A stretch of 46,686 nt of DNA from Rhodovastum atsumiense (GTDB lineage Bacteria > Pseudomonadota > Alphaproteobacteria > Acetobacterales > Acetobacteraceae), in the NCBI GenBank assembly GCA_026225115.1, contig JAMFSE010000068.1:1-46686 (forward strand), in the 5' to 3' direction. The translations under genes and the position numbers were made by a program. The notes beneath the pieces were generated by a model, which ran no database searches, had not been told where the DNA came from, and worked only from the letters and a program-made list of their open reading frames with translations. This document shows, piece by piece, positions 27,822 through 39,110 of the stretch. Each line of letters opens with the position of its first letter. The stretch's first letter is position 1.

Positions 27822-28058
27822 ATGATTACCGCCGCTCCAATGCTGGCGCAGGGTCTGGCGCTATCCCTCGCCCGCGCGCAATTCGGATTTACCATCGCCT
27901 TTCATATCATGTTTCCGGCGTTCTCGATTGGGCTTGCGAGTTTTCTCGCGGTGCTGGAGGCGGGCTGGCTGATAAGCAGGCGGCAGGTGTTTCTCGATGC
28001 CTATAAATACTGGCTGAAAATCTTCTCCGTTTCGTTTGCGATGGGCGTGGTTTCCGGC
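27822..28058 (+). pseudogene. cioA: cioA/cydA fragment: first ~79 codons of quinol oxidase subunit I
   Basis: The reading frame starts well (GGGAGAG ribosome site, ATG 27822) and encodes the N-terminus of a bd-type/cyanide-insensitive quinol oxidase subunit I. LARAQFGFTIAFHIMFPAFS contains the expected heme-ligand histidine, and KIFSVSFAMGVVSG leads into helix 2. Homology ends at about 28058 where the family would continue with a Gln-rich loop. The frame then runs 31 unrelated codons to a stop at 28149-28151. The next bases belong to subunit II in another frame, so an internal deletion has removed about four fifths of cioA and the first half of cioB. Confidence 0.85.
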
Positions 28059-28062
28059 CTGT

Positions 28063-28494
28063 CGGATCGGCGTTGTGATGCTGGCGTTGATCGGCATCGT
28101 CTCCCTTTGGTCGCCGTTTCTGGATTCAGCATTTTTTCATCGCTGGTTTGAATGGCCCGGCGTTCTGGCAACCGGGCTGGCGCCGATTCTTGTGGCGATT
28201 CTGGCGGCGGTTTATTTCTGGCAGTTATCCGAAAAGGCTCGGCGTATTCGCGACGAAATGCCGTTTACCTGTGCGCTGGGGCTGTTTGTGCTGTGCTATC
28301 TTGGCCTCGGCTATTCCATTTTCCCGCTGATTGTGCCGCCGTCGATTACGATATGGCAGGCGTCTTCACCGCCGGCCAGCCAGTTTTTTCTGATCACCGG
28401 CACGTTGGTGCTGATTCCCATTATTCTTGCCTATAATATTTTTGCCTATTGGGTGTTTCGCGGAAAGGTGCAGCCGGGTGCGCATTACCGCTGA
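28063..28494 (+). pseudogene. cioB: cioB/cydB fragment: C-terminal part of quinol oxidase subunit II
   Basis: About 143 codons corresponding to the last membrane helices of subunit II are open here: VVMLALIGIVSLWSP, GYSIFPLIVPPSITIWQASS, LITGTLVLIPIILAYNIFAY and the ending WVFRGKV. The frame is shifted relative to the cioA fragment upstream, and no cioB start remains. The ATG at 28036 reads cioA codons out of frame. The stop (28492-28494) is in its normal place, overlapping the DUF2474 gene. A functional oxidase cannot be made from this locus. Confidence 0.85.
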
Positions 28495-29497: not shown

Positions 29498-29701
29498 ATT
29501 GTGATCCTGTGACAGCCGAGCCTTATGCCGGCGCGGCTGACATGAGCACCGCGCAGGCATCAATTCAATACCTTCCTGGCATTGGCGCGGTTGTATCCGA
29601 TGTTGTTTAAGGATCGAATATTTGAAGGGCGCCGACCGGCGAGCATCCGGATACCGGCGTTTGTGAACGCGAAGGGTTTGGTTGATGGCCGATTGCATAG
29701 C

Positions 29702-30028
29702 GTGAACGCGGCCGAGGGCAGCCTGCAATCCCGGCTTGCGGCGTTATGCGCGCGCCGGGCCGAAGTTGCGATCTGGAACGCGGCATATGAAGCGGTAATC
29801 GCGGAACTGCACCGGTCCGGGTTTCTGCAGCATGTCATCAATGAAGGCGAGGCCTTTCCTGATTTCGTAATGCCCAGTGCCGAGGGCCGGCTGGTCTCGC
29901 TCGCCGGCCTGCTGGAGCGCGGGCCTGTCATCATCTCCTTCTTTCGGGGAGAATGGTGCCCGTTCTGCCAGCTGATGCTGAGCGCCTTGGCCGCAGCATT
30001 GCCGCAGATTGAAGCCGCGGGGGTTTTA
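29702..30028 (+). pseudogene. Truncated peroxiredoxin-like (AhpC/TSA) gene
   Basis: The frame encodes the N-terminal half of a peroxiredoxin-like protein. A helical leader (LQSRLAALCARRAEVAIWNA) is followed by GEAFPDFVMPSAEGRLVSLA and GPVIISFFRGEWCPFCQLML with the catalytic WCPFC motif, then AALPQIEAAG. Homology stops abruptly near 30026, exactly at the end of the oppositely oriented GT2 gene. Beyond that the frame is only antisense to GT2. The thioredoxin-fold C-terminal half is missing, so the enzyme should be inactive. The start is uncertain: GTG 29702 is one choice and ATG 29600 another. Confidence 0.75.
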
Positions 30029-30733
30029 TGCCTGCGAAACGGCGCGTTTGCCGGATGTGGCGACGCGGCGGAAGGTTGCGATGATGCGCCAGGAGGCGCG
30101 GATCGATCCGCGCAGCGAGCCTGCGACTTTCGACTCGCCGCCAATGCGGCAGCGATAGGGCAGCGGGACCTCCAAGATGCGCAGGCCATGCCGCGCCGCC
30201 TCAATCTGCATTTCGATATTCCAGCCATAGGTCATCTCGCGCAGATCCAGGCGCTGCAAGGCGTCGCGCCGGATCGCCCGGAAGGCGCACATGTCGCTAT
30301 AGCGCGTGCCGGTGACGGCGCCGATGGCAAAGCCCAGAACATGGCCGGCGGCGATCTGGTGCAGGCTCATCGCGCCGCGATCACGCAAATGCCGGACCCG
30401 CGCGGCGATGACGAAATCCTTCTCATTGCGCTGGATGGGGGCGGTCAGTTCCTGCAACAGATCCGCGCGGTCGGCGCCGTCGCCATCCATGAAGACAATG
30501 ATGTCGCAATCCGGATTTGCGGATGCCACTGCTGCCGCGCAGGCACGGCCGTAGCCGCGTGCATGCAATTCCAGCACACGGGCGCCGGCGGCGAGGGCGG
30601 CGGCCTGGGTACCATCCGTGCTGCCGCTGTCGGCAATGATGATTTCGGTAACGATGGCGGGAATTTCGGCGATGACCTGGGCGATGGATTCCACCTCGTT
30701 CAGCGTCGGGATGATGACGGCGATGCCGGGCAT
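30026..30733 (-). CDS. Family 2 glycosyltransferase (polyprenyl-phosphate sugar synthase-like)
   Basis: Predicted 235 aa. The GT-A fold is evident from IAVIIPTLNEVESIAQVIAE, ADSGSTDGT, the DGD motif at 83-85 (IIVFMDGDGADR) and EMTYGWNIEMQIEAARHGLR, a pattern seen in dolichyl/polyprenyl-phosphate mannose synthases and related enzymes. It lacks the long membrane tail. It probably loads a sugar onto a lipid carrier, which the GT-C membrane transferase of the same operon could then use. This is an inference from the pairing. It is the last gene of the nine-gene operon, starting one base after the radical SAM gene stops. Confidence 0.88.
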   Translation of the reverse strand: MPGIAVIIPTLNEVESIAQVIAEIPAIVTEIIIADSGSTDGTQAAALAAGARVLELHARGYGRACAAAVASANPDCDIIVFMDGDGADRADLLQELTAPIQRNEKDFVIAARVRHLRDRGAMSLHQIAAGHVLGFAIGAVTGTRYSDMCAFRAIRRDALQRLDLREMTYGWNIEMQIEAARHGLRILEVPLPYRCRIGGESKVAGSLRGSIRASWRIIATFRRVATSGKRAVSQA

Positions 30734-30734
30734 G

Positions 30735-31787
30735 CTACAGGCTCCAGCGCATGCCGCAATTCTGGCAGGGTTTTGGCGGCGCGTCGCTGAGCAAACTGGT
30801 GCGGAAATCGCGATAGGCCGGGCTGTTCCAGATATCGCGCAGGCTTTGCTGGGTGGCGTCGCCCAAGGTGTAATTCTCATAGCCGCGGGCGGAGAACGGC
30901 GCGATGCAGCATGGCAGCGCACGGCCATGGGCGGTGAAATACATCAGCGACCAGGGACGCCGGCAGGTTGACCAGGGGCGTTCGTCCTCACCGGCTTTCA
31001 GGCTGAGGCCGGGCTCGGTCGCGCCGGAGGCATTCAGGCGGATGCCCGATGCGGCGGCAATTGCCTGGGCGGCGGCGACGGTTGCGTCTTCTTCGGCGCG
31101 TGTGTGCTCGAATAAAGCGGATTCCGCGCGGGCGAGGCCGAATCCCGCCTCGTCGAACACCAGGCGCTGCAGATGCACTTCCCGCACGCCGATCTGCGCC
31201 GCCAGGCGGACGAAATCCGGCAATTGGCCGACGGTTTCCTTCAGGCCGGTGAGCCACATGGAAACCAGCGGGATGGTTGCGCCGATCTGCTTTTGCAGCG
31301 TCGTAAAACTGCTGATGTTGCGGACGATGCGGTCGAACATGTCCTTGCCGCGGACGGCAAGAAAGGTTTTGGCGTCGGCGGCGTCGAGCGAGACACGCAG
31401 CTCATCGAGGCCGGTTTCGATCAGTTCGCGCTGCTTGCGGGGGGTGAGCAAGGTGCCGTTGGTGTTGAACAGCGTGTAGATACCGCGCGCCTTTAGATAA
31501 CGGATCATCTGCGGCAGGTTTTTGACCAGCATCGGTTCGCCGACGCCGTGCATGACCACGCGGGCGATGTTGGGCACCTGGTCGATGATGGAGGTGAAGA
31601 GCTCCCAACTCATATCCGCTGGCGATTCCAGATCCTCGAAGGTGCGTGGGCAGGTTTCGCAAAGCAGGTTGCAGCGGTTGGTTACCTCCAGATACAGGCA
31701 GACCGGCGGGCTTGCAGCCTCGGCGGCACGCGTTGCTTCCACGGCTTCGAAATAACGGCGGGGATCCGCGAGCGGGGCACCATTCAT
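30735..31787 (-). CDS. Radical SAM/SPASM domain protein
   Basis: Predicted 350 aa. The radical SAM cluster motif CNLLCETC supplies C39, C43 and C46 (LYLEVTNRCNLLCETCPRTF). GVGEPMLVKNLPQMIRYLK corresponds to the GE/SAM-binding region. A C-terminal SPASM-like Cys set (STCRRPWS, ALPCCIAPF, CQNCGM) would hold an auxiliary iron-sulfur cluster. The layout resembles maturases and sugar- or peptide-modifying enzymes. The substrate is unknown, and no precursor peptide gene is visible nearby. The start at ATG 31787 overlaps the GT-C gene stop by four bases. Confidence 0.9.
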   Translation of the reverse strand: MNGAPLADPRRYFEAVEATRAAEAASPPVCLYLEVTNRCNLLCETCPRTFEDLESPADMSWELFTSIIDQVPNIARVVMHGVGEPMLVKNLPQMIRYLKARGIYTLFNTNGTLLTPRKQRELIETGLDELRVSLDAADAKTFLAVRGKDMFDRIVRNISSFTTLQKQIGATIPLVSMWLTGLKETVGQLPDFVRLAAQIGVREVHLQRLVFDEAGFGLARAESALFEHTRAEEDATVAAAQAIAAASGIRLNASGATEPGLSLKAGEDERPWSTCRRPWSLMYFTAHGRALPCCIAPFSARGYENYTLGDATQQSLRDIWNSPAYRDFRTSLLSDAPPKPCQNCGMRWSL

Positions 31788-33166
31788 ATGCTGTCTCCTT
31801 CGGCAAATTTCATTGGGTTCGGGGCGCCGGAAAATTTTGCTGCCCGCATATCGACCACCGCCAAGACGAAGAACGGGCCGTAGAGCAAGGCCGGCCAGAA
31901 CAGTTCCGTGTGCGTTGGGTTGAGGTAGAGCAGGAAGCCGGCGGTCACGAGGTAGAGAACGCTGGACCAGGGCAGGATGCAGGCCGGGATGAGCAGCCAG
32001 CAATAATACCATGGGTAATGCGGTGAGAGCCCGGCCATCAGCAGGCAGCCGAGCAGCAGCGCGTTGCGGGCGATGATTTTTGTCCCCGCCGCGCGGTCAG
32101 GGAGCAATGGCTGCACGAACGTCATGATTGCGCCAAGTGCGATGAAGGCGGCTACGAGCATGGCCAAGTAGATTTTCGATGCATAGGCCGGCAGGTCTAT
32201 CGCATGGCCGGCGATGGAGAGGAGAAAAATGCCGGCGCCGCTATCAATCCCTTCCTGCGCATTATAGCCGCCAAGAAAACCAAGCACGGCTTTGCCGGCG
32301 GTGAGATAGGGCAAATAGAGGGCGATGACGAAGCTGGCGAAGACGGCAGTAAATTTCCAGTTTCGGCGCCAAAGAGCCGGGAACAGAACGGCGGGCAGAA
32401 ATTTCGTCAGCGTCGCGGCGGCGAGTGCGAGCGCACTCAATTTGGTTTTCGCCTCGACCGCCGCCAGCAAGGCAAAGGCGATGAAGCAGATGGCGATGGC
32501 GTCGACATGGCCGCTGCCGGCGAATTCCCAAAGCGGCAGCGGATTCCAGGCATAGATGAGGATTCTTGTGCGCGGCAGTCCGGCGTGGTCGAGCAGCCGC
32601 AGCATGCCCCAGATGCCGCCGGCCTCGAATGCCAGCATTGCCAGCTTCATCGTTAAAACCGGGACGGCGGCCAGCAGTTTGGCGGCATTTGCAATGGCGA
32701 AGAATATCATCTCGGCCGCGGGCGGGTAGATGGTGTGCGCGTAGTCGGCGCGGTTGATGTTGGGGAACACCGCGGCGTCGCGCAGAAACGCCAGATGCGG
32801 ATCCGCGGGGATGTAGCGGTACGGGTTGATGCCGGCGCCCTGCACCCAGCCGTCCCAGATGTAGCGATAGATATCGTTTGAGAGAAATGGCGGAAAGATC
32901 ACAATCATCGCGCGCAGCAGGAAGGTGCCGGCGAGCACAATCCAAAGCAGGCGCGATGACGGTTTGCTGCGCAGGATCAGGAGGACTGCCACGAAATAGA
33001 TGAGGCCTTGAACGCATCCTAGGGCGACAAAGAAATCCAGCGGCCGGCCATAGCCGATGCCGAACTGGCCGATGACGGCGCGCGGCAAGGTCAACCCGAA
33101 TGCGGTGAGAGCAGCGAGAAAAACGCCGCATAACACCAGGGATAGCTCGGGTTTCGGTGCGCGCAT
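31784..33166 (-). CDS. GT-C-type membrane glycosyltransferase (GT87/mannosyltransferase-like)
   Basis: Predicted 460 aa with roughly ten or more membrane helices. The conserved luminal-loop signature FLSNDIYRYIWDGWVQGAGI, NPYRY, with HTIYPPAAEMIFF later, is typical of polyprenyl-phosphate-sugar-dependent GT-C enzymes. Further helices contain LYLPYLTAGKAVLGFLGGY and GLSPHYPWYYCWLLIP. It should transfer a sugar from a lipid carrier on the outer face of the cytoplasmic membrane. It starts directly at the end of the TIGR04282-type gene without a gap and overlaps the radical SAM gene. Confidence 0.85.
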   Translation of the reverse strand: MRAPKPELSLVLCGVFLAALTAFGLTLPRAVIGQFGIGYGRPLDFFVALGCVQGLIYFVAVLLILRSKPSSRLLWIVLAGTFLLRAMIVIFPPFLSNDIYRYIWDGWVQGAGINPYRYIPADPHLAFLRDAAVFPNINRADYAHTIYPPAAEMIFFAIANAAKLLAAVPVLTMKLAMLAFEAGGIWGMLRLLDHAGLPRTRILIYAWNPLPLWEFAGSGHVDAIAICFIAFALLAAVEAKTKLSALALAAATLTKFLPAVLFPALWRRNWKFTAVFASFVIALYLPYLTAGKAVLGFLGGYNAQEGIDSGAGIFLLSIAGHAIDLPAYASKIYLAMLVAAFIALGAIMTFVQPLLPDRAAGTKIIARNALLLGCLLMAGLSPHYPWYYCWLLIPACILPWSSVLYLVTAGFLLYLNPTHTELFWPALLYGPFFVLAVVDMRAAKFSGAPNPMKFAEGDSI

Positions 33167-33946
33167 TTAGGCCGTTTTTACTTCCAGCTCGCTTAGCATG
33201 CGTTGCAGATAGAAGGAACTTGCCAGCGCCGAAAATGGACGCAGGGTTTCATCCAGAGGCGGCGGCGAGTCGATGCTGTCGATCAGCCTGGACAGCGCGG
33301 CGGCGTCATCGACATCGTACCAGCTCGGCAGCATCACCAGTTCAAGACCGATCTTTTGCGCACGCAAAGCTGTTTGGGCTGCGACATCCGCCGTGCTCCA
33401 GGCGATATCTTCGAACAGATGCGCATGGGCCTGTTTAACGCCGAGCAGATAATAGCCGCCGTCATCGGCCGGACCGAGCACGGCGCGGTCGCCGGGCTGC
33501 GCCAGCAGATTTGCGGTCATCACCAGAATGCTGGTCGGCAAGGTCGGGCTGTCGGCGTTCAGCACGCAGGCGGAGCCATAGCCAGCGGCCAACAGTGATT
33601 GCACGGCGTGCAGGAGGCAGCGGCCGAAGCCCTGCACCTGCGGCGGCATGTCCGGGGCGCCATCTGCCAGGACCAGGCCTGTGCCTTCTGCCAGATGGCC
33701 GTCGAATAGCGATTCCAGGCCGGCGGGGGCATAGGCGATGTAGCCATCGATTGCGGCCTTGCGGCCAGCTGTAGCCGCCCGGCCCGCGGCCGCAATATTT
33801 TCCGTGATGTCGCGCAGGAAGGCGGCGCTGAGGCCCGCGGCCTCGTTTGGGGTGAGCGGCGGCGAGAGGCGGGTTTTGCAGCGGCCGGGCTGTGGGGCTT
33901 TTGCCATGACCGCGATCGCGCAGGCGGCCGCCTTAGCAGCGCTCAT
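33167..33946 (-). CDS. TIGR04282/DUF2064-family glycosyltransferase-like protein
   Basis: Predicted 259 aa. Signature motifs are VMAKAPQPGRCKTRLSPPLT (nucleotide-binding start), LNADSPTLP, the LGPADDGGYYLLG loop and SWYDVDD. The family is related to nucleotidyltransferases and GT2 enzymes and is often found beside radical SAM and glycosyltransferase genes, including arsenosugar clusters, although the reaction is not established. Here it overlaps the phosphorylase gene by 4 bases and abuts the GT-C gene, so it belongs to one transcription unit. Confidence 0.9.
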   Translation of the reverse strand: MSAAKAAACAIAVMAKAPQPGRCKTRLSPPLTPNEAAGLSAAFLRDITENIAAAGRAATAGRKAAIDGYIAYAPAGLESLFDGHLAEGTGLVLADGAPDMPPQVQGFGRCLLHAVQSLLAAGYGSACVLNADSPTLPTSILVMTANLLAQPGDRAVLGPADDGGYYLLGVKQAHAHLFEDIAWSTADVAAQTALRAQKIGLELVMLPSWYDVDDAAALSRLIDSIDSPPPLDETLRPFSALASSFYLQRMLSELEVKTA

Positions 33947-34806
33947 CTAGCAGCCGCCGTCAGCCCGGCGCGGGCGGCGAGCCCGGCGCGGGCGGCGATG
34001 GTGATGACATCCAAAGCGTCATGCGCGCCGTTGGCCTCGCCTTTTTCGAAATCGCCGATCTGGCCCAGCTGGTTGGTTACCTGGGCAAAGCATAAAACCG
34101 GTTTGCCGCAGGCCTTGGCAAATGCGTAGAGTGCGGCTGCTTCCATTTCCACCGCCAGGATGTTTTCGGCCTTGGCCGCCGCCACCGCCAGTTCGGTTTC
34201 GCGGAACGGCGCGTCGGTGGTCCAGCTGGCGCCGATATGCACATGCCGGTGCGCCCCAAGCAATGCCGCCAGCACGGGTTGGATGAGGGCGACATCGGCA
34301 GCGGCATAACGCGCTGGCGGCAGGTAATGATAGCTGGTGCCCTCATCGCGCAAGGCGCGTTCGATCAGGATGAAATAGGGCGCCGCCGCACTCGCGATGA
34401 TTTGTCCCGCCGAGCTGATGCTGATCAGCAATTCGCAGCCGCAGGCAAAAACCTGTTCGGCGAGAAGCACCGAGAAGGCGGCGCCGACTGCACCGCCGAT
34501 GATGCAGAAGCGGATGCCATTACGCTCGAATTCGAACATGGCGGTGTGGTAGCAGGCCCAGTGTTCGCATGACCTCGCCTCACCGCTGCGCTGTAGCTGG
34601 GCGAGCAGATCGCCGTCCGGATCCAGGATGCAAACCGGTGCGACGGTTATGTCGGATAATTGTTTCTGCCGCCGCGCTTCCCGCAGCATGTTGCGCGCCA
34701 GAAATACCGAAGGCGCTGCGTGGTCCTTGGCGTTCAGGATCGGCGTGCGGTTTTGCGCCTGCTCGAGAACCGTCCAGATTTCTTCGAACCTTGCTGATTG
34801 ATCCAT
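33943..34806 (-). CDS. Nucleoside phosphorylase-like protein
   Basis: Predicted 287 aa. Motifs of the PNP/uridine phosphorylase superfamily are visible: FCIIGGAVGAAFSVLLAEQV, CELLISISSAGQI, GASWTTDAPFRET and VEMEAAALYAFAKACGKPVL (purine/ribose-binding Glu region). Such enzymes split nucleosides with phosphate, or hydrolyse them, releasing the base and an activated sugar. In this operon, with sugar transferases and a radical SAM enzyme, it could supply or process a nucleoside-derived sugar. This is an inference. ATG 34806 is one base after the stop of the molybdenum enzyme gene, and an ATG 4 codons earlier would overlap that gene. Confidence 0.85.
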   Translation of the reverse strand: MDQSARFEEIWTVLEQAQNRTPILNAKDHAAPSVFLARNMLREARRQKQLSDITVAPVCILDPDGDLLAQLQRSGEARSCEHWACYHTAMFEFERNGIRFCIIGGAVGAAFSVLLAEQVFACGCELLISISSAGQIIASAAAPYFILIERALRDEGTSYHYLPPARYAAADVALIQPVLAALLGAHRHVHIGASWTTDAPFRETELAVAAAKAENILAVEMEAAALYAFAKACGKPVLCFAQVTNQLGQIGDFEKGEANGAHDALDVITIAARAGLAARAGLTAAAR

Positions 34807-34807
34807 C

Positions 34808-35551
34808 TTAAATCCCACTGAACCAGTTGTAGCCGCGATCCACCCAGAACCCGCCGGGGTTGCGGTTGGTGACGTAAATAGCGGTCACGAATTTCGGCTG
34901 TTTGAAGCCGAGTTTCGTCGGAATGCGGATTTTGAAGGGAAACCCGTATTTGGTGGGCAGTATATTATCCGAGAGCTTGAATGCCATGATGGTCTGCGGC
35001 TGCAGCGCCGTCGGCATGTCGATGCTCTCGTAATAGCCATCGGCGCAGACGAATCCTACATATTTTGCCGTGAGGTCGGCGCCGACCAAGGTGAGAAAGG
35101 TTTTCAGCGGCGTGCCGGTCCATTTGCCGATCATGCTCCAGCCTTCGACGCAGACATGGCGGGTCACCTGGCTCCGCTGCGGCAGGCCGTAGAGCTGCCG
35201 CATATTCCAGGGACGTTTGTCGGCAATCAGCCCGGCGAGTTCCAATTTGTAAGTTGAGGCCTCGATGACGGGGGCGAGCGGCGCCTGGTACCAGGCGTTG
35301 TAGCGGAAATTCTTCACCGCCATGCTTTCCGGATATTCCGGGGCGAGTTTGCTGCGGCTGAAAAGTTCTTCCTGTACGAAATTATTCCAGCGCGAGACGC
35401 GGGCGAACATCTGCTGCACGATATCGTCATCGCTGATGTCGCAGCCGGTGAGCAGCGTGAGCGCGCCGAGACTGAGGCCGTTGCGCAGCAGCTTGCGGCG
35501 ATCGACGTCGGCGTTAATTTTTGGCGGTTGAATGATTTCATTCTCCGGCAT
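34808..35551 (-). CDS. Tat-exported molybdopterin-dependent oxidoreductase (sulfite oxidase-type fold), possible lipoprotein
   Basis: Predicted 247 aa. The N-terminus has a twin arginine (VDRRKLLRNGLSLGALTLL) followed by TGC, which fits a lipobox, suggesting Tat export and lipid anchoring. The catalytic domain shows the molybdopterin-binding pattern with a candidate Mo-ligand cysteine in RHVCVEGWSMIGKWTGTPLK, plus YVGFVCADGYYESIDMPTAL. The family includes MsrP/YedY and sulfite oxidases. It is shorter than typical sulfite oxidases because no dimerisation domain is present. The 14-base overlap with the cytochrome b gene suggests that they form one membrane complex, as in YedYZ-like pairs. Confidence 0.9.
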   Translation of the reverse strand: MPENEIIQPPKINADVDRRKLLRNGLSLGALTLLTGCDISDDDIVQQMFARVSRWNNFVQEELFSRSKLAPEYPESMAVKNFRYNAWYQAPLAPVIEASTYKLELAGLIADKRPWNMRQLYGLPQRSQVTRHVCVEGWSMIGKWTGTPLKTFLTLVGADLTAKYVGFVCADGYYESIDMPTALQPQTIMAFKLSDNILPTKYGFPFKIRIPTKLGFKQPKFVTAIYVTNRNPGGFWVDRGYNWFSGI

Positions 35552-36248
35552 GATGCATTGGCTCCGGATGGGTGGGGTGGGCGTGGCTGGCGCGGCCGAA
35601 GACCATCGCGACGAAGGTTTTCGGCACCAGGATCACAAGCGCGACATGCACGACCATGAACAGGCAGATCGCCGACATGAAGATGAAATGCAGTACTCGC
35701 GCGGTGGGATAGCCGCCGAACAGCCAAGTAAGGCCGCTCAGCTGTGCCGGTTTCCAGATGGCAAGACCAGTCAGGAACATCATCAATATGGCGAAGAGAA
35801 CGCCCCAATAGGCGAAACGCTGCACGGCGTTGTATTCGCCCAGGCGATGGCCGAGACGGAAGGTGGCGGCGGCGATGAAATCACGCAAAATATCGCGCGG
35901 CCGCAGGGGCAGCAGATGCCGCCAGAAATGACCGGAAATTGTGCCATGCGCCATGAACAGCAGATAGCTTGCCAGCAGCAGCCACATGCCGGTGAAATGC
36001 CAGTTCAGCGCGTTGGCGACGCCGGGGTCCATATGGGCGATTTTCGATTGCAGCGGGTTGCCGCCCAATGTCGCCCATAGCGGGAAGCGGTAATTGCCGA
36101 AAATAGGAACGGAGTTGTAGATCCGCCAGCCGCTGCCGATCATGATGACAATGGCCAGCGCCTGCAGCCAATGGGCGATGCGCACCAGCGCCGGGTGTTC
36201 CTGGATGTCATGGGTTGCAGGGTTTGGTTTGGTGCGCCTGAGTTTCAT
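35538..36248 (-). CDS. Cytochrome b (b561/thiosulfate reductase-type) membrane subunit
   Basis: Predicted 236 aa with four or five membrane helices and histidines placed for heme b: HPALVRIAHWLQALAIVIMI, NWHFTGMWLLLASYLLFMAH, FAYWGVLFAILMMFLTG and VLHFIFMSAICLFMVVHVAL. This is the Ni-hydrogenase/thiosulfate-reductase cytochrome b pattern. It would exchange electrons between the quinone pool and the periplasmic molybdenum enzyme encoded by the next, overlapping gene. The upstream gene overlaps by 4 bases. The C-terminus is His-rich (SHAHPTHPEPMHHAGE), perhaps metal-binding. Confidence 0.9.
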   Translation of the reverse strand: MKLRRTKPNPATHDIQEHPALVRIAHWLQALAIVIMIGSGWRIYNSVPIFGNYRFPLWATLGGNPLQSKIAHMDPGVANALNWHFTGMWLLLASYLLFMAHGTISGHFWRHLLPLRPRDILRDFIAAATFRLGHRLGEYNAVQRFAYWGVLFAILMMFLTGLAIWKPAQLSGLTWLFGGYPTARVLHFIFMSAICLFMVVHVALVILVPKTFVAMVFGRASHAHPTHPEPMHHAGE

Positions 36249-36937
36249 GACACGACGCCAAGCCCGGCGGTCCGGAGTGCGGTGGTTCCCGCAGTGCTGC
36301 GCATTACGTTCAGAAGCGCCTGGGCATTTGGGCTTACCGCCTTGGCGTTTACCGCGCCGGCGTAATTTGTCAGCTTCGGGTCGGCGGTGAGCGTTGCAAG
36401 AATTGTCAGCCGCGGGTCGGCTTTTACGTCAGTTGCGTAGACCAGGCCGATATCGGCCGCGCCGGTGATGACGAGGAACGCCACATCACCGGTGTTGGGG
36501 GCGCCGATCACACGCGAATTCGTCAGGCCGTTGGCCGCGAGAACGGCGCGACCGTCAAGACCGGATGCGACGGTGTTGTCGGTTACCGCGAGTCTTACCC
36601 CGGACGTCATGCGCAACAGAGCCGGTTTGTCCGCCGGTATCGTCGCGCGATCGCGTAAGCCGGCCAGGACCAGGGGATTGGAAAAACCATCTATTCGCGT
36701 TTCCGGCCGGACCAGTTGCAATTGCACGGCCTGGTCCATCGCGCTGCTCAAGGTGAACAAAACATCGTTGCGCGTATGTCGCTGGATTTGCGCCAGCATC
36801 AAACTGGCCGGCGCCGAGAGAACGCTGACCGGCGCCCCGGCCTGCGCCTGCGAGATTCTGTTCAGCGATCGCATTGCGGGCCCCAAGGTGGGGTCGCAAA
36901 AAACGGTGACGCCCGGTGGAATGATGCCCGCGCTCAT
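36245..36937 (-). CDS. ModA-like substrate-binding domain protein without visible signal peptide
   Basis: Predicted 230 aa. The fold resembles molybdate/sulfate-type binding proteins: TVFCDPTLGPAMRSLNRISQ, SSAMDQAVQLQLVRPETRID, FSNPLVLAGLRD, RVIGAPNTGDVAFLVITGAA, DIGLVYATDV and a final helix. The chosen start (ATG 36937, one-base TGATG overlap with the DoxD-like gene) gives no export signal. A longer frame to 37090 would add residues from the DoxD antisense region without a convincing signal either. No transporter permease or ATPase genes are nearby. It may act as a cytoplasmic sensor or molybdate/cofactor donor, which is speculative. Confidence 0.75.
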   Translation of the reverse strand: MSAGIIPPGVTVFCDPTLGPAMRSLNRISQAQAGAPVSVLSAPASLMLAQIQRHTRNDVLFTLSSAMDQAVQLQLVRPETRIDGFSNPLVLAGLRDRATIPADKPALLRMTSGVRLAVTDNTVASGLDGRAVLAANGLTNSRVIGAPNTGDVAFLVITGAADIGLVYATDVKADPRLTILATLTADPKLTNYAGAVNAKAVSPNAQALLNVMRSTAGTTALRTAGLGVVS

Positions 36938-37584
36938 CAGGAGACCAGCGCGTAGATATGGCCTATCTTCGAGGCCGGAGCGAAAATGGGTTTGCGGCGC
37001 AGCAGATGATCCAGCCCGAGGCTTTGCCCGGCGCCGCCGGCTGCGAACATGCCATGCGCGCACATGATGCCGACATAGGTCCAGACCCATTCGGTCGGAT
37101 CGTTATAAAGCCCGATAAGAAGATTAAGGATGAACAGAGCCGCAATGGCGCCGGTGAAGCGGACCGCGAAGCCGAAGGCCAGCGAGGCCGCGAAGAAAAC
37201 TTCCAGCAGATAGACGAGCGGTTGCACGATGGCGATGCGGTTCAAAAAAACCTGCATGATATCTGCGTGCCATTGAAAGGAGCTGTACGTGACGCAGTTG
37301 GTCAGCCAGTCTTTAAAACCATGGGCGACCGGCCAGGGCAGTTTCCAAAGCGTTCCGAGATACCACATGCCGGCGGAGAGAAAGCGCATCAGAAAGACGA
37401 AGAGATGATGGGCGGTGCGCTGCTCGGGATCTTTCGACCAGTTGTACCACGCGATGGCGAGGCCGCCGAAAAACATCACCCATGCCATGGCAACGGTGAA
37501 CCAGCGCAACGACCCCAAAGCGAGCTGGTCGTGAATTTGCCCGGTCATGACCTGGAACAGCGAGTGGATGGCGTTGTCACGCAT
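36937..37584 (-). CDS. DoxD-like (thiosulfate:quinone oxidoreductase subunit family) membrane protein
   Basis: Predicted 215 aa with four or five helices. WFTVAMAWVMFFGGLAIAWY, FLMRFLSAGMWYLGTLWKLP, ALVYLLE-like VQPLVYLLEVFFAASLAFGF and GAIAALFILNLLIGLYNDPT followed by EWVWTYVGIMCAHGMFAAGG fit the TQO/DoxD and DoxX family. Thiosulfate oxidation is the classical role, but many relatives serve unknown stress-related redox functions. It is the first gene of the leftward nine-gene operon. ATG 37584 is preceded by AGGAAGG at 8-base spacing, and a sigma-F-like promoter lies about 60-85 bases upstream. Confidence 0.85.
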   Translation of the reverse strand: MRDNAIHSLFQVMTGQIHDQLALGSLRWFTVAMAWVMFFGGLAIAWYNWSKDPEQRTAHHLFVFLMRFLSAGMWYLGTLWKLPWPVAHGFKDWLTNCVTYSSFQWHADIMQVFLNRIAIVQPLVYLLEVFFAASLAFGFAVRFTGAIAALFILNLLIGLYNDPTEWVWTYVGIMCAHGMFAAGGAGQSLGLDHLLRRKPIFAPASKIGHIYALVS

Positions 37585-37829: not shown

Positions 37830-37882
37830 TAGACATTCAGGCCGGCACATGCGTGCAAACATCCGCAAAGCCGCCGCGCCAT

Positions 37883-37909
37883 GCAACCTTTTGGGGAAGT
37901 CATATCGAA
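37883..37909 (+). promoter_or_regulatory. Second, imperfect copy of the sigma-F-type motif overlapping the msrB start
   Basis: GCAACC (37883-37888), then 17 bases, then CGAA (37906-37909), whose last A is the first base of the msrB ATG. The bases after the -35 (TTTTGGGG) closely match those of the upstream motif (TTTTGGG), suggesting a local duplication. Used as a promoter it would start transcription inside the msrB coding sequence, so it may be a non-functional relic or a binding site that modulates the first promoter. Confidence 0.35.
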
Positions 37910-38412
37910 TGAACCGTCGTAGCATTCTCTTCTCAACAAGCGCCCTAGCGGCGCTTGCCGTTTTCGCCGGTTACCGGCGGCTGGGCTCGGCCCATGCCGC
38001 GTCGCAGCCCGGGCAGCAATATTCGGTGACCTTTACCGATGCACAGTGGCGCAAGCGCCTCGGTCCGGCGGCGTATGATGTGTTGCGTGAGGCGGGAACC
38101 GAGCCGCCATTTACCTCGCCTTTGCTGCATGAGGAGCGCAGCGGCGTTTTTGGCTGTGCCGGCTGTTCGCTGCCGCTTTACGCATCCAGCACCAAATTCG
38201 ACAGCGGCACCGGCTGGCCGAGTTTCTGGGATCATTTTCCGAAGGCGGTGGACACCTCCGATGACAGCAGCTTCGGCATGTCCCGCACCGAGGTGCATTG
38301 CAGCCAATGCGGCGGTCATCTCGGGCATGTTTTCCCCGACGGCCCGCAACCCACAGGCCTGCGCTATTGCATGAACGGCGTGGCGCTCAACTTCACCCCG
38401 AGGATCGGATGA
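37909..38412 (+). CDS. msrB: Peptide-methionine (R)-S-oxide reductase MsrB, exported
   Basis: Predicted 167 aa. The N-terminus NRRSILFSTSALAALAVFAG has a twin arginine and hydrophobic core, so export by Tat or Sec is likely. The mature enzyme has the zinc cysteines (FGCAGCSLPLY and VHCSQCGGHLGHVFPDGP), the conserved STKFDSGTGWPSFWD segment and the catalytic cysteine in LRYCMNG. It repairs methionine-R-sulfoxide in envelope proteins. I chose ATG 37909 because it begins the signal sequence and follows GGGGAAG. ATG 37849 would place 20 extra residues ahead of the signal. Coupled to msrA by TGATGATG at the junction. Confidence 0.95.
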   Translation: MNRRSILFSTSALAALAVFAGYRRLGSAHAASQPGQQYSVTFTDAQWRKRLGPAAYDVLREAGTEPPFTSPLLHEERSGVFGCAGCSLPLYASSTKFDSGTGWPSFWDHFPKAVDTSDDSSFGMSRTEVHCSQCGGHLGHVFPDGPQPTGLRYCMNGVALNFTPRIG

Positions 38413-39110
38413 TGCGTAAAATTTACCTCGCGATGCTTCTTATCGGCGGCGTGGCCGCGTTTGCCCATTTTCATCGCGCGGTGGCGGATCCGGCAATGCC
38501 GGTGCCCGCACCGGCGGTCGATGCGCCGCTTGCTAAAACGCCGGGGAGCGAGACCGCCATACTCTCCGGCGGCTGCTTCTGGGGCATGCAGGCGGTGTTT
38601 CAGCATGTGAAGGGGGTGAAGGACGCGGTTGCCGGCTATACCGGCGGCGCCGCCGCTACGGCGGAATATGAGGTCGTCAGCACGGGTGAGACCGGGCATG
38701 CGGAATCCATCAAAATCACCTATGACCCCAGCGTCGTCAGCTACGGGACATTGCTGCGGGTGTATTTTTCGGTGGCAACGGATCCGACCGAGCTCAACTT
38801 CCAGACGCCGGACACCGGCACCCAGTACCGGGGCGAAATCTGGGTTGCCGATCCGGATCAGCGGCGGATTGCGGCGGCGTATATCAGCCAGCTGAAAGCG
38901 GCCCACGCCTTTGATGCGCCGATCGTGACGCGGGTAGACGCGGCGATGCCGTTTTATCCGGCGGAGGCTTATCATCAGAATTACGCGACGCTTAATCCGG
39001 ACAGCATGTATATCGCCACCTATGATGCGCCGAAGGTGAGGGCGCTCGCCCAGTTCTTTCCCAGCCTCTATGTCGCCCGCCCTGTGCTTGTGCAGGTCGC
39101 GACAGATTGA
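38409..39110 (+). CDS. msrA: Peptide-methionine (S)-S-oxide reductase MsrA, exported
   Basis: Predicted 233 aa. An N-terminal hydrophobic signal (KIYLAMLLIGGVAAFAHF) precedes the catalytic motif GGCFWGMQAVFQHVKGVKDA and the family segments GYTGGAAATAEYEVVSTGET, GHAESIKITYDP and DTGTQYRGEIW. The end FYPAEAYHQNY is the usual substrate-binding region. It reduces methionine-S-sulfoxide and complements MsrB. Start codons at 38409 and 38412 both fit, the first overlapping the msrB stop. Coexport of MsrA and MsrB suggests protection of periplasmic or surface proteins from oxidants. Confidence 0.95.
   Translation: MMRKIYLAMLLIGGVAAFAHFHRAVADPAMPVPAPAVDAPLAKTPGSETAILSGGCFWGMQAVFQHVKGVKDAVAGYTGGAAATAEYEVVSTGETGHAESIKITYDPSVVSYGTLLRVYFSVATDPTELNFQTPDTGTQYRGEIWVADPDQRRIAAAYISQLKAAHAFDAPIVTRVDAAMPFYPAEAYHQNYATLNPDSMYIATYDAPKVRALAQFFPSLYVARPVLVQVATD

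What the first reader, a model, noticed from the sequence alone, without database searches (positions are those of the whole stretch)
30026..37584. Nine-gene operon joining a molybdenum redox module to nucleoside/sugar/radical SAM chemistry
Genes for a DoxD-like protein, ModA-like protein, cytochrome b, Tat molybdopterin enzyme, nucleoside phosphorylase, TIGR04282 transferase, GT-C transferase, radical SAM/SPASM enzyme and GT2 transferase are spaced by 0-2 bases or overlap. I know no described pathway with this set. One reading: envelope redox repair plus synthesis of a lipid-linked, nucleoside-derived glycan.
Basis: partly seen in the sequence, partly recalled or inferred. Interest (0 to 1): 0.7.

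Follow-up and report, generated by a model that had tools for sequence, protein, structure and literature searches.

The report
Exchangeable-module sugar and redox gene cassette
A run of nine bacterial genes that looked like an odd one-off turns out to be one version of a gene cassette found in several groups of bacteria, probably for building an unusual sugar on the cell surface, with redox parts that have been swapped for others during evolution.

Summary
The nine ORFs exist as described: minus strand, 37584 to 30026, junctions -14 to +1 bases. They are one form of a modular cassette. A core of DUF2064/TIGR04282 transferase, membrane glycosyltransferase, radical SAM enzyme and polyprenyl-phosphate-type GT2 recurs in Acetobacteraceae-like genomes, Methylobacterium, two further Alphaproteobacterial families and, partly, an actinomycete. 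A Tat-lipoprotein molybdopterin enzyme with a b-type cytochrome lies near the radical SAM gene in 44 of 60 named loci and 18 of 20 loci of another family, in changing order and strand. Parts are exchanged: ModA-like versus PRC-barrel partner (16, 19, both 0, of 49), GT87 versus an unrelated 660-aa membrane protein (42, 16, both 0, of 61), the Mo unit versus an Rv1679-Rv1681-like trio (4 of 61). Phosphorylase and DoxD-like genes form an optional linked pair. Best reading: a radical-edited sugar is activated, loaded on a lipid carrier and transferred outside the membrane, with a quinone-linked redox step there. Substrate, product and redox direction are unknown. My text searches found no description.

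The parts
36937..37584 (-). DoxD/DoxX-like membrane protein (215 aa), optional part, usually with the phosphorylase
   Evidence: Pfam DoxX 14 bits, below cut-off; homologue L190:5269-5946 hits Pfam DoxD 26.5 against 22.7; linked to the phosphorylase gene: 10 of 49 loci both, 35 neither, 2 + 2 one only
36245..36937 (-). ModA-like solute-binding protein (230 aa), without signal peptide in the window
   Evidence: SBP_bac_11 85.1 bits; molybdate equivalog not reached; most of the 20 homologues printed begin with a signal-like stretch, the Acidocella ones do not (read by eye)
35538..36248 (-). b-type cytochrome (236 aa), fit for two hemes
   Evidence: Ni_hydr_CYTB 75.4 bits; His84, 187, 201 in 64 of 64 and His26 in 63 of 64 aligned homologues, cassette and standalone together
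34808..35551 (-). sulfite-oxidase-fold molybdopterin enzyme (247 aa) with RR and a lipobox-like Cys37
   Evidence: Oxidored_molyb 91.6 bits; Cys134 in 75 of 75, Cys37 in 74 of 75 (one gap), RR in 53 to 55 of 75 (18 to 20 gaps)
33943..34806 (-). nucleoside phosphorylase superfamily protein (287 aa), divergent active site
   Evidence: PNP_UDP_1 84.3 bits; AlphaFold model pLDDT 84.1 with NP-I fold; Ser and Asn at the phosphate-Arg and catalytic-Asp columns in 26 of 26
33167..33946 (-). DUF2064/TIGR04282 (CofC-like) transferase (259 aa)
   Evidence: TIGR04282 134.2 against 134
31784..33166 (-). GT87-like GT-C glycosyltransferase (460 aa)
   Evidence: GT87 23.4 against 25; WDG-type loop conserved
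30735..31787 (-). radical SAM enzyme, probably with one auxiliary cluster (350 aa)
   Evidence: Radical_SAM and SPASM; C39, C43, C46, C275, C293, C341, C344 invariant in 29 rows, C294 also invariant in the 12 closer rows; model pLDDT 80.6, best PDB matches BlsE, DesII
30026..30733 (-). GT2, polyprenyl-phosphate sugar synthase type (235 aa)
   Evidence: Glycos_transf_2 79.3 bits; AglJ 119.1 bits, below cut-off 325

Best explanation
This is one version of a modular cassette for making and finishing a sugar modification of the cell envelope. SHOWN: the core (DUF2064, membrane glycosyltransferase, radical SAM, GT2) is conserved as a neighbourhood; the Mo lipoprotein and cytochrome b pair accompanies it in most loci examined; partners are exchanged for non-homologous ones. 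INFERRED FROM FAMILIES: the radical SAM enzyme edits a sugar or sugar-like substrate (BtrN, BlsE and DesII are the models); the DUF2064 protein activates a sugar phosphate with a nucleotide, as CofC-like enzymes do; GT2 loads it on polyprenyl phosphate; the GT-C (GT87, or the unrelated 660-aa membrane protein) moves it to an acceptor outside the membrane. There, a Tat-exported, lipid-anchored Mo enzyme exchanges electrons with the quinone pool through the cytochrome b and carries out one redox step on the product, its acceptor or a damaged form. INFERRED, WEAKER: the phosphorylase-family protein and DoxD-like protein are an optional supply or by-product branch, for example splitting a nucleoside to give sugar, or clearing a radical SAM by-product. 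The acceptor, the sugar and the direction of the redox step are unknown.
For: Core neighbours of the radical SAM gene among eligible named loci: GT2 63 of 71, GT87 62 of 73, DUF2064 63 of 68. Mo gene near: 44 of 60, and 18 of 20 in a second family with different order and strand. ModA-type Mo enzyme (62% identity or more) occurs in 13 of 147 genomes, all 13 among the 19 that hold the core, Fisher p 2e-14, kinship not corrected for. Phosphorylase: 12 of the 16 genomes that have it also have the core, p 6e-10, likewise uncorrected; in four of them it is on another contig. GT87 or the replacement protein, never both, in 61 loci. GT87 and GT2 fused in Miltoncostaea. The Mo tree separates ModA-type and PRC-type clades (1 change) while the radical SAM tree needs 4 changes between types for 42 loci, which fits exchange of modules. 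Radical SAM Cys pattern and structure matches. BtrN as a one-cluster, four-Cys enzyme that oxidises an aminocyclitol is from passages of PMC9012708.
Against: No substrate or product is known. 16 of 60 named loci show no Mo gene in the stretch held, and 7 of 61 loci with 5 kb on both sides lack any recognised redox partner. Peptide-acting SuiB and SkfB match the radical SAM model nearly as well as DesII and better than or as well as BtrN, all with rmsd of about 4 to 9 A. A fifth C-terminal Cys (C294) is invariant in close homologues, so the one-cluster reading is not certain. A word search for DUF2064 found no paper, so its role is by analogy. GT87 is under its Pfam cut-off. The ModA-like protein seems to lack an export signal here, which the scheme does not explain.
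Confidence: 0.42

Rival explanations
1. Two unrelated units: a periplasmic methionine-sulfoxide or similar reductase unit (Mo enzyme and cytochrome b, beside msrB-msrA) that merely neighbours a sugar operon.
For: Two-gene cytochrome b-Mo units without the core stand in many relatives: 12 of the 18 regions are such pairs from the same family, one more (L149) has a PRC-type protein added; 59 of 147 genomes have some match to the Mo enzyme. msrB-msrA is divergent from the operon in the window and from a standalone pair in L152.
Against: Neighbourhood kept in several groups in different arrangements; the cassette Mo enzymes form two clades of their own, apart from the standalone pairs except L149, and one origin is not rejected, p-AU 0.46; the ModA-type occurs only in core genomes, 13 of 13.
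Confidence: 0.17
2. The radical SAM protein is a maturase of the Mo enzyme, and the glycosyltransferases modify that enzyme or its lipid anchor.
For: Closest NCBIfam models are TIGR04317 (145 bits, cut-off 380) and TIGR04311 (128.5, cut-off 400), named as metalloenzyme maturases.
Against: The core occurs without a Mo gene in the stretch held (16 of 60) and with a non-Mo trio instead (4 of 61); both models far below cut-off; radical SAM model is nearest to small-molecule enzymes.
Confidence: 0.12
3. Hopanoid-like logic: the radical SAM enzyme joins 5'-deoxyadenosine to a lipid, the phosphorylase removes adenine, and glycosyltransferases extend the ribosyl lipid.
For: Radical SAM and phosphorylase in one operon, as in HpnH and HpnG (analogy from recall); phosphorylase co-occurs with the core.
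Against: HpnG model 19.1 bits against 187.1; the genome has a better HpnG candidate elsewhere, 173.5 bits, itself below cut-off; phosphorylase not seen near 37 of 49 loci; Ser and Asn at the catalytic columns.
Confidence: 0.1
4. A variant of arsenosugar or selenosugar synthesis.
For: TIGR04282 is named for arsenosugar biosynthesis; the trio's binding protein resembles a putative selenate binder, 88.6 bits against 250.
Against: No ArsS in this genome: best 28.7 bits against 300; GT2 is not TIGR04283, 48.6 against 182.
Confidence: 0.05

Closest known systems
Polyprenyl-phosphate sugar synthase plus GT-C transferase pairs (DPM1/AglJ-type GT2 with GT87/PimE-type GT-C; pairing recalled)
   Same: GT2 nearest AglJ and dolichyl-phosphate hexose transferase models, GT-C beside it, fused with it in Miltoncostaea
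   Different: Joined here to a radical SAM enzyme, a DUF2064 protein and a Mo redox unit
BtrN / BlsE / DesII radical SAM enzymes
   Same: Four C-terminal Cys aligned with BtrN; top structure matches BlsE and DesII, BtrN ninth
   Different: About 16-19% identity; a fifth C-terminal Cys in close homologues; substrate unknown
MsrP (YedY) methionine-sulfoxide reductase
   Same: Sulfite-oxidase fold, conserved Cys, MsrP is the best NCBIfam model, 78.6 bits
   Different: Under cut-off 207; lipobox-like Cys; cytochrome b561-type partner, not the MsrQ type (MsrQ recalled)
Rv1679-Rv1680-Rv1681 families (FadE16, binding-protein-like, radical SAM with TusA-like part)
   Same: Homologues adjoin the same core in L162, L190, L191, L231 and L042; Rv1681 model above cut-off in the first four
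   Different: Not found in 147 relatives of the window (controls silent); Rv1679 and Rv1680 models stay below cut-off in the proteins scanned; the mycobacterial neighbourhood was not examined

Membership tests
TIGR04282 (named arsenosugar biosynthesis glycosyltransferase) | score over 134 bits | tested here: met
   134.2 bits, at the very edge; 156.6 for L190
Arsenosugar pathway | ArsS radical SAM protein in the genome | tested here: not met
   best 28.7 bits against 300
Arsenosugar pathway | TIGR04283 partner | tested here: not met
   GT2 48.6 bits against 182
MsrP | NF003767 score over 207 | tested here: not met
   78.6 bits
MsrP | reduces protein methionine sulfoxide | not testable with these tools
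   -
Sulfite-oxidase-fold Mo enzymes (PF00174) | domain score and Mo-ligand Cys | tested here: met
   91.6 bits; Cys134 in 75 of 75; that it ligates Mo is from knowledge of the fold
Molybdate-binding protein ModA | TIGR01256 score over 62.5 | tested here: not met
   35 bits
SPASM/twitch radical SAM | CxxxCxxC plus auxiliary-cluster Cys | tested here: met
   seven invariant Cys in 29 rows, four of them C-terminal, a fifth (C294) in 12 closer rows; one cluster is inferred by comparison with BtrN
TIGR04317 tungsten-enzyme maturase | score over 380 | tested here: not met
   145 bits
Hopanoid HpnG | score over 187.1 | tested here: not met
   19.1 bits; better candidate elsewhere, 173.5
Purine nucleoside phosphorylase (DeoD) | phosphate-binding Arg and catalytic Asp | tested here: not met
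   Ser and Asn in 26 of 26; which residues matter in DeoD is recalled
GT87 | Pfam score over 25 | tested here: inconclusive
   23.4 bits; homologues annotated 'glycosyltransferase 87 family'
Rv1681 radical SAM family (trio of some relatives, not the window) | NF049973 score over 380 | tested here: met
   484 for L162, 497.2 for L190, 492.8 to 498.6 for the three genomes; 225.5 for Miltoncostaea, below

The most novel reading that the evidence does not exclude
An undescribed envelope-glycan pathway: a radical-edited sugar is mounted on a lipid carrier, transferred by either GT87 or a new GT-C family (the 660-aa protein without Pfam match), and finished by a redox module that evolution has exchanged more than once (Mo lipoprotein with cytochrome b, or the flavoprotein, binding protein and TusA-like radical SAM trio of the Rv1679-Rv1681 kind). 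Since the ModA-type form and the trio both carry a relative of oxyanion-binding proteins (the PRC-type form does not), the modification may involve a sulfur, selenium or phosphorus oxyanion.
Probability: 0.3. Interest if true: 0.78.

Novelty: new variant of a known kind. Interest (0 to 1): 0.6.

Why it matters
If right, a set of genes usually annotated one by one (arsenosugar transferase, ModA, purine phosphorylase, radical SAM protein) is one surface-sugar system in soil and plant-associated bacteria. It would give function to DUF2064 proteins, predict that an unnamed membrane family is a glycosyltransferase, and tie Rv1679-Rv1681-type genes, for which my searches found no function, to sugar chemistry. 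Two Methylobacterium plasmid records carry the cassette, which makes it testable.

Tried and rejected
Arsenosugar pathway: no ArsS. Hopanoid HpnG: another gene fits better. Moco maturase: models far below cut-off, and the core lives without the Mo gene nearby. Phage-defence viperin: PADLOC gives 54.7 bits to a viperin model over residues 33-151 of the radical SAM protein, taken as superfamily resemblance. Rv1681-type radical SAM in the window's relatives: 0 of 147, but the 14 controls did not ring either, so that call alone does not show absence; the same model did ring in the second family, 3 of 248. Even draws found the radical SAM gene at E 1e-60 in 1 of 384 other genomes of the class and 2 of 397 others of the phylum, with at most 5 candidates scored per genome, so spread outside the groups named is thin or missed. 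Text searches: no paper; one search gave 278 papers (15 listed, listing only, none on this set by title); one search gave 326 (25 listed: tuberculosis biomarker or proteome papers and unrelated ones, listing only); nine arsenic or other papers and one unrelated paper, listings only; one search listed the radical SAM papers, of which I read passages of PMC9012708 and nothing else. The 660-aa protein against PDB: one match, E 2.1; TIGR03662 17 bits for one of three proteins, cut-off 300, a hint only.
Full report
OBSERVATION. The nine ORFs are real and tightly packed on the minus strand. Seven have clear Pfam matches; GT87 is marginal and the DoxD label rests on homologues. The window is contig C114 of a 3.67 Mb genome; the nearest named loci are Acidocella. 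The upstream divergent genes are msrB and msrA.

CONSERVATION. The radical SAM gene has close relatives (69% identity or more) in 19 of 147 genomes drawn as relatives, own included; 4 of 37 other genomes of the own genus have it, so it is patchy. In the family of G443, 15 of 39 genomes have it. The one scan of named genomes gave 305 loci encoding some relative; the best 80 were kept. Among those with enough flank, GT2 follows in 63 of 71, GT87 precedes in 62 of 73 and DUF2064 lies upstream in 63 of 68. A Mo gene is within 10 kb in 44 of 60 with at least 4.2 kb upstream; in several of the other 16 the contig ends sooner. Two Methylobacterium plasmids carry cytochrome b, Mo enzyme, a small protein here called PRC-type, DUF2064, GT87, radical SAM, GT2 and aminotransferase in one run.

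SECOND FAMILY. In the family of G684, 41 of 248 genomes have the core. In the loci fetched their radical SAM proteins are 62-66% identical to the window's, against 73-75% for Methylobacterium. I fetched 20 of these 41, chosen by contig position, except that G1085 was already known to hold the trio: 18 of 20 have Mo enzyme and cytochrome b within 10 kb, often on the opposite strand, and 9 of 20 have the phosphorylase beside the core. With G684 and G700, seen before, that makes 18 with the Mo unit, 3 with the trio and 1 with neither of 22. Kept neighbours in changed order are stronger evidence of a shared task than a single operon.

EXCHANGED PARTS. (a) The ModA-like protein and the PRC-type protein exclude each other: 16, 19, both 0, neither 14, of 49 loci. 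A PRC-barrel match was found for L233 (36 bits) and not for the Methylobacterium protein, so the name is by homology. The ModA-like protein is poorly conserved and some may be missed. (b) GT87 and an unrelated 660-aa membrane protein exclude each other: 42, 16, both 0, neither 3, of the 61 loci with enough flank out of 104. (c) In place of the Mo unit, 4 of the 61 have an acyl-CoA-dehydrogenase-like flavoprotein, a PhnD-like binding protein and a radical SAM protein with a weak TusA-like part, of the Rv1679, Rv1680 and Rv1681 families; only the radical SAM reaches its cut-off. A similar set, below all three cut-offs, adjoins the core in the actinomycete Miltoncostaea. In the G684 family the Rv1681 model rings in 3 of 248 genomes, all three with the core 5 to 6 kb away, all one genus, so likely one event. 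(d) Phosphorylase and DoxD-like genes go together: both 10, neither 35, one only 4, of 49. The other redox types in the 61: PRC-type 29, ModA-type 16, Mo with neither 5, no partner 7.

HISTORY. In the tree of 68 Mo proteins the ModA-type and PRC-type form separate well-supported clades; the PRC-type clade also holds L149, a unit on another contig than its genome's core. The root is a midpoint for drawing only. For the 42 loci with both sequences and a known type, the radical SAM tree needs 4 changes of type, the Mo tree 1. This fits exchange of modules, though early presence of both with losses is not excluded. A single origin of all cassette Mo genes is not rejected (p-AU 0.461).

MECHANISM. 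The Mo protein has RR in 53 to 55 of 75 rows (18 to 20 gaps), a lipobox-like Cys37 in 74 of 75 and Cys134 in all: a Tat-exported lipoprotein by inference. The cytochrome has four near-invariant His, fit for two hemes. The radical SAM protein has seven invariant Cys over 29 rows, four of them C-terminal, which matches the one-cluster arrangement described for BtrN in PMC9012708 (passages read); a fifth C-terminal Cys, C294, is invariant in the closer rows. Its model (pLDDT 80.6) is nearest to BlsE and DesII, then SuiB, SkfB and BtrN; I weigh this as a lean to sugars, not proof. The phosphorylase-family model has the NP-I fold, with Ser and Asn where the solved enzymes have Arg and Asp; it may be a hydrolase, or do something else. 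The ordering DUF2064, GT2, GT-C follows family knowledge.

LIMITS. No expression, product or phenotype data. Fisher values ignore kinship. The redox direction is open. The ModA-like protein seems cytosolic here, which my scheme does not explain.

Noticed in passing
window 29582-30043 (+): AhpC/TSA-type peroxiredoxin gene present only as an N-terminal part; it ends where the cassette's GT2 gene ends. The C-terminal half of a relative (L145, beside a standalone cytochrome b-Mo pair; likeness seen by eye) has no match in the window.
   Followed up: partly
window 27822-28494 (+): Remnant of a cytochrome bd oxidase: the start of subunit I (profile 1-65 of 418) is followed by the end of subunit II (profile 192-302), as after an internal deletion.
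   Followed up: partly
L233:3343-5307, L137:11562-13550, L245:12957-14912 and others: Membrane protein family of about 660 aa with a YYYLWHF-like motif and no meaningful Pfam match that stands where GT87 is missing; predicted here to be a GT-C transferase.
   Followed up: partly
L190, L191, L231, L162, L042: Relatives of Rv1679-Rv1681 next to the same sugar core.
   Followed up: partly
L213:459-4853: A second partial locus in the relative G024: phosphorylase, a CcdA-like protein (by eye), DoxD-like and DUF2064.
   Followed up: no
window 36245-36937; L063, L064: The ModA-like protein seems to lack a signal peptide in the Acidocella loci, unlike most other homologues printed (by eye).
   Followed up: no
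window 37849-39110; L152: msrB-msrA divergent from the operon, and also from a standalone cytochrome b-Mo pair in L152.
   Followed up: partly
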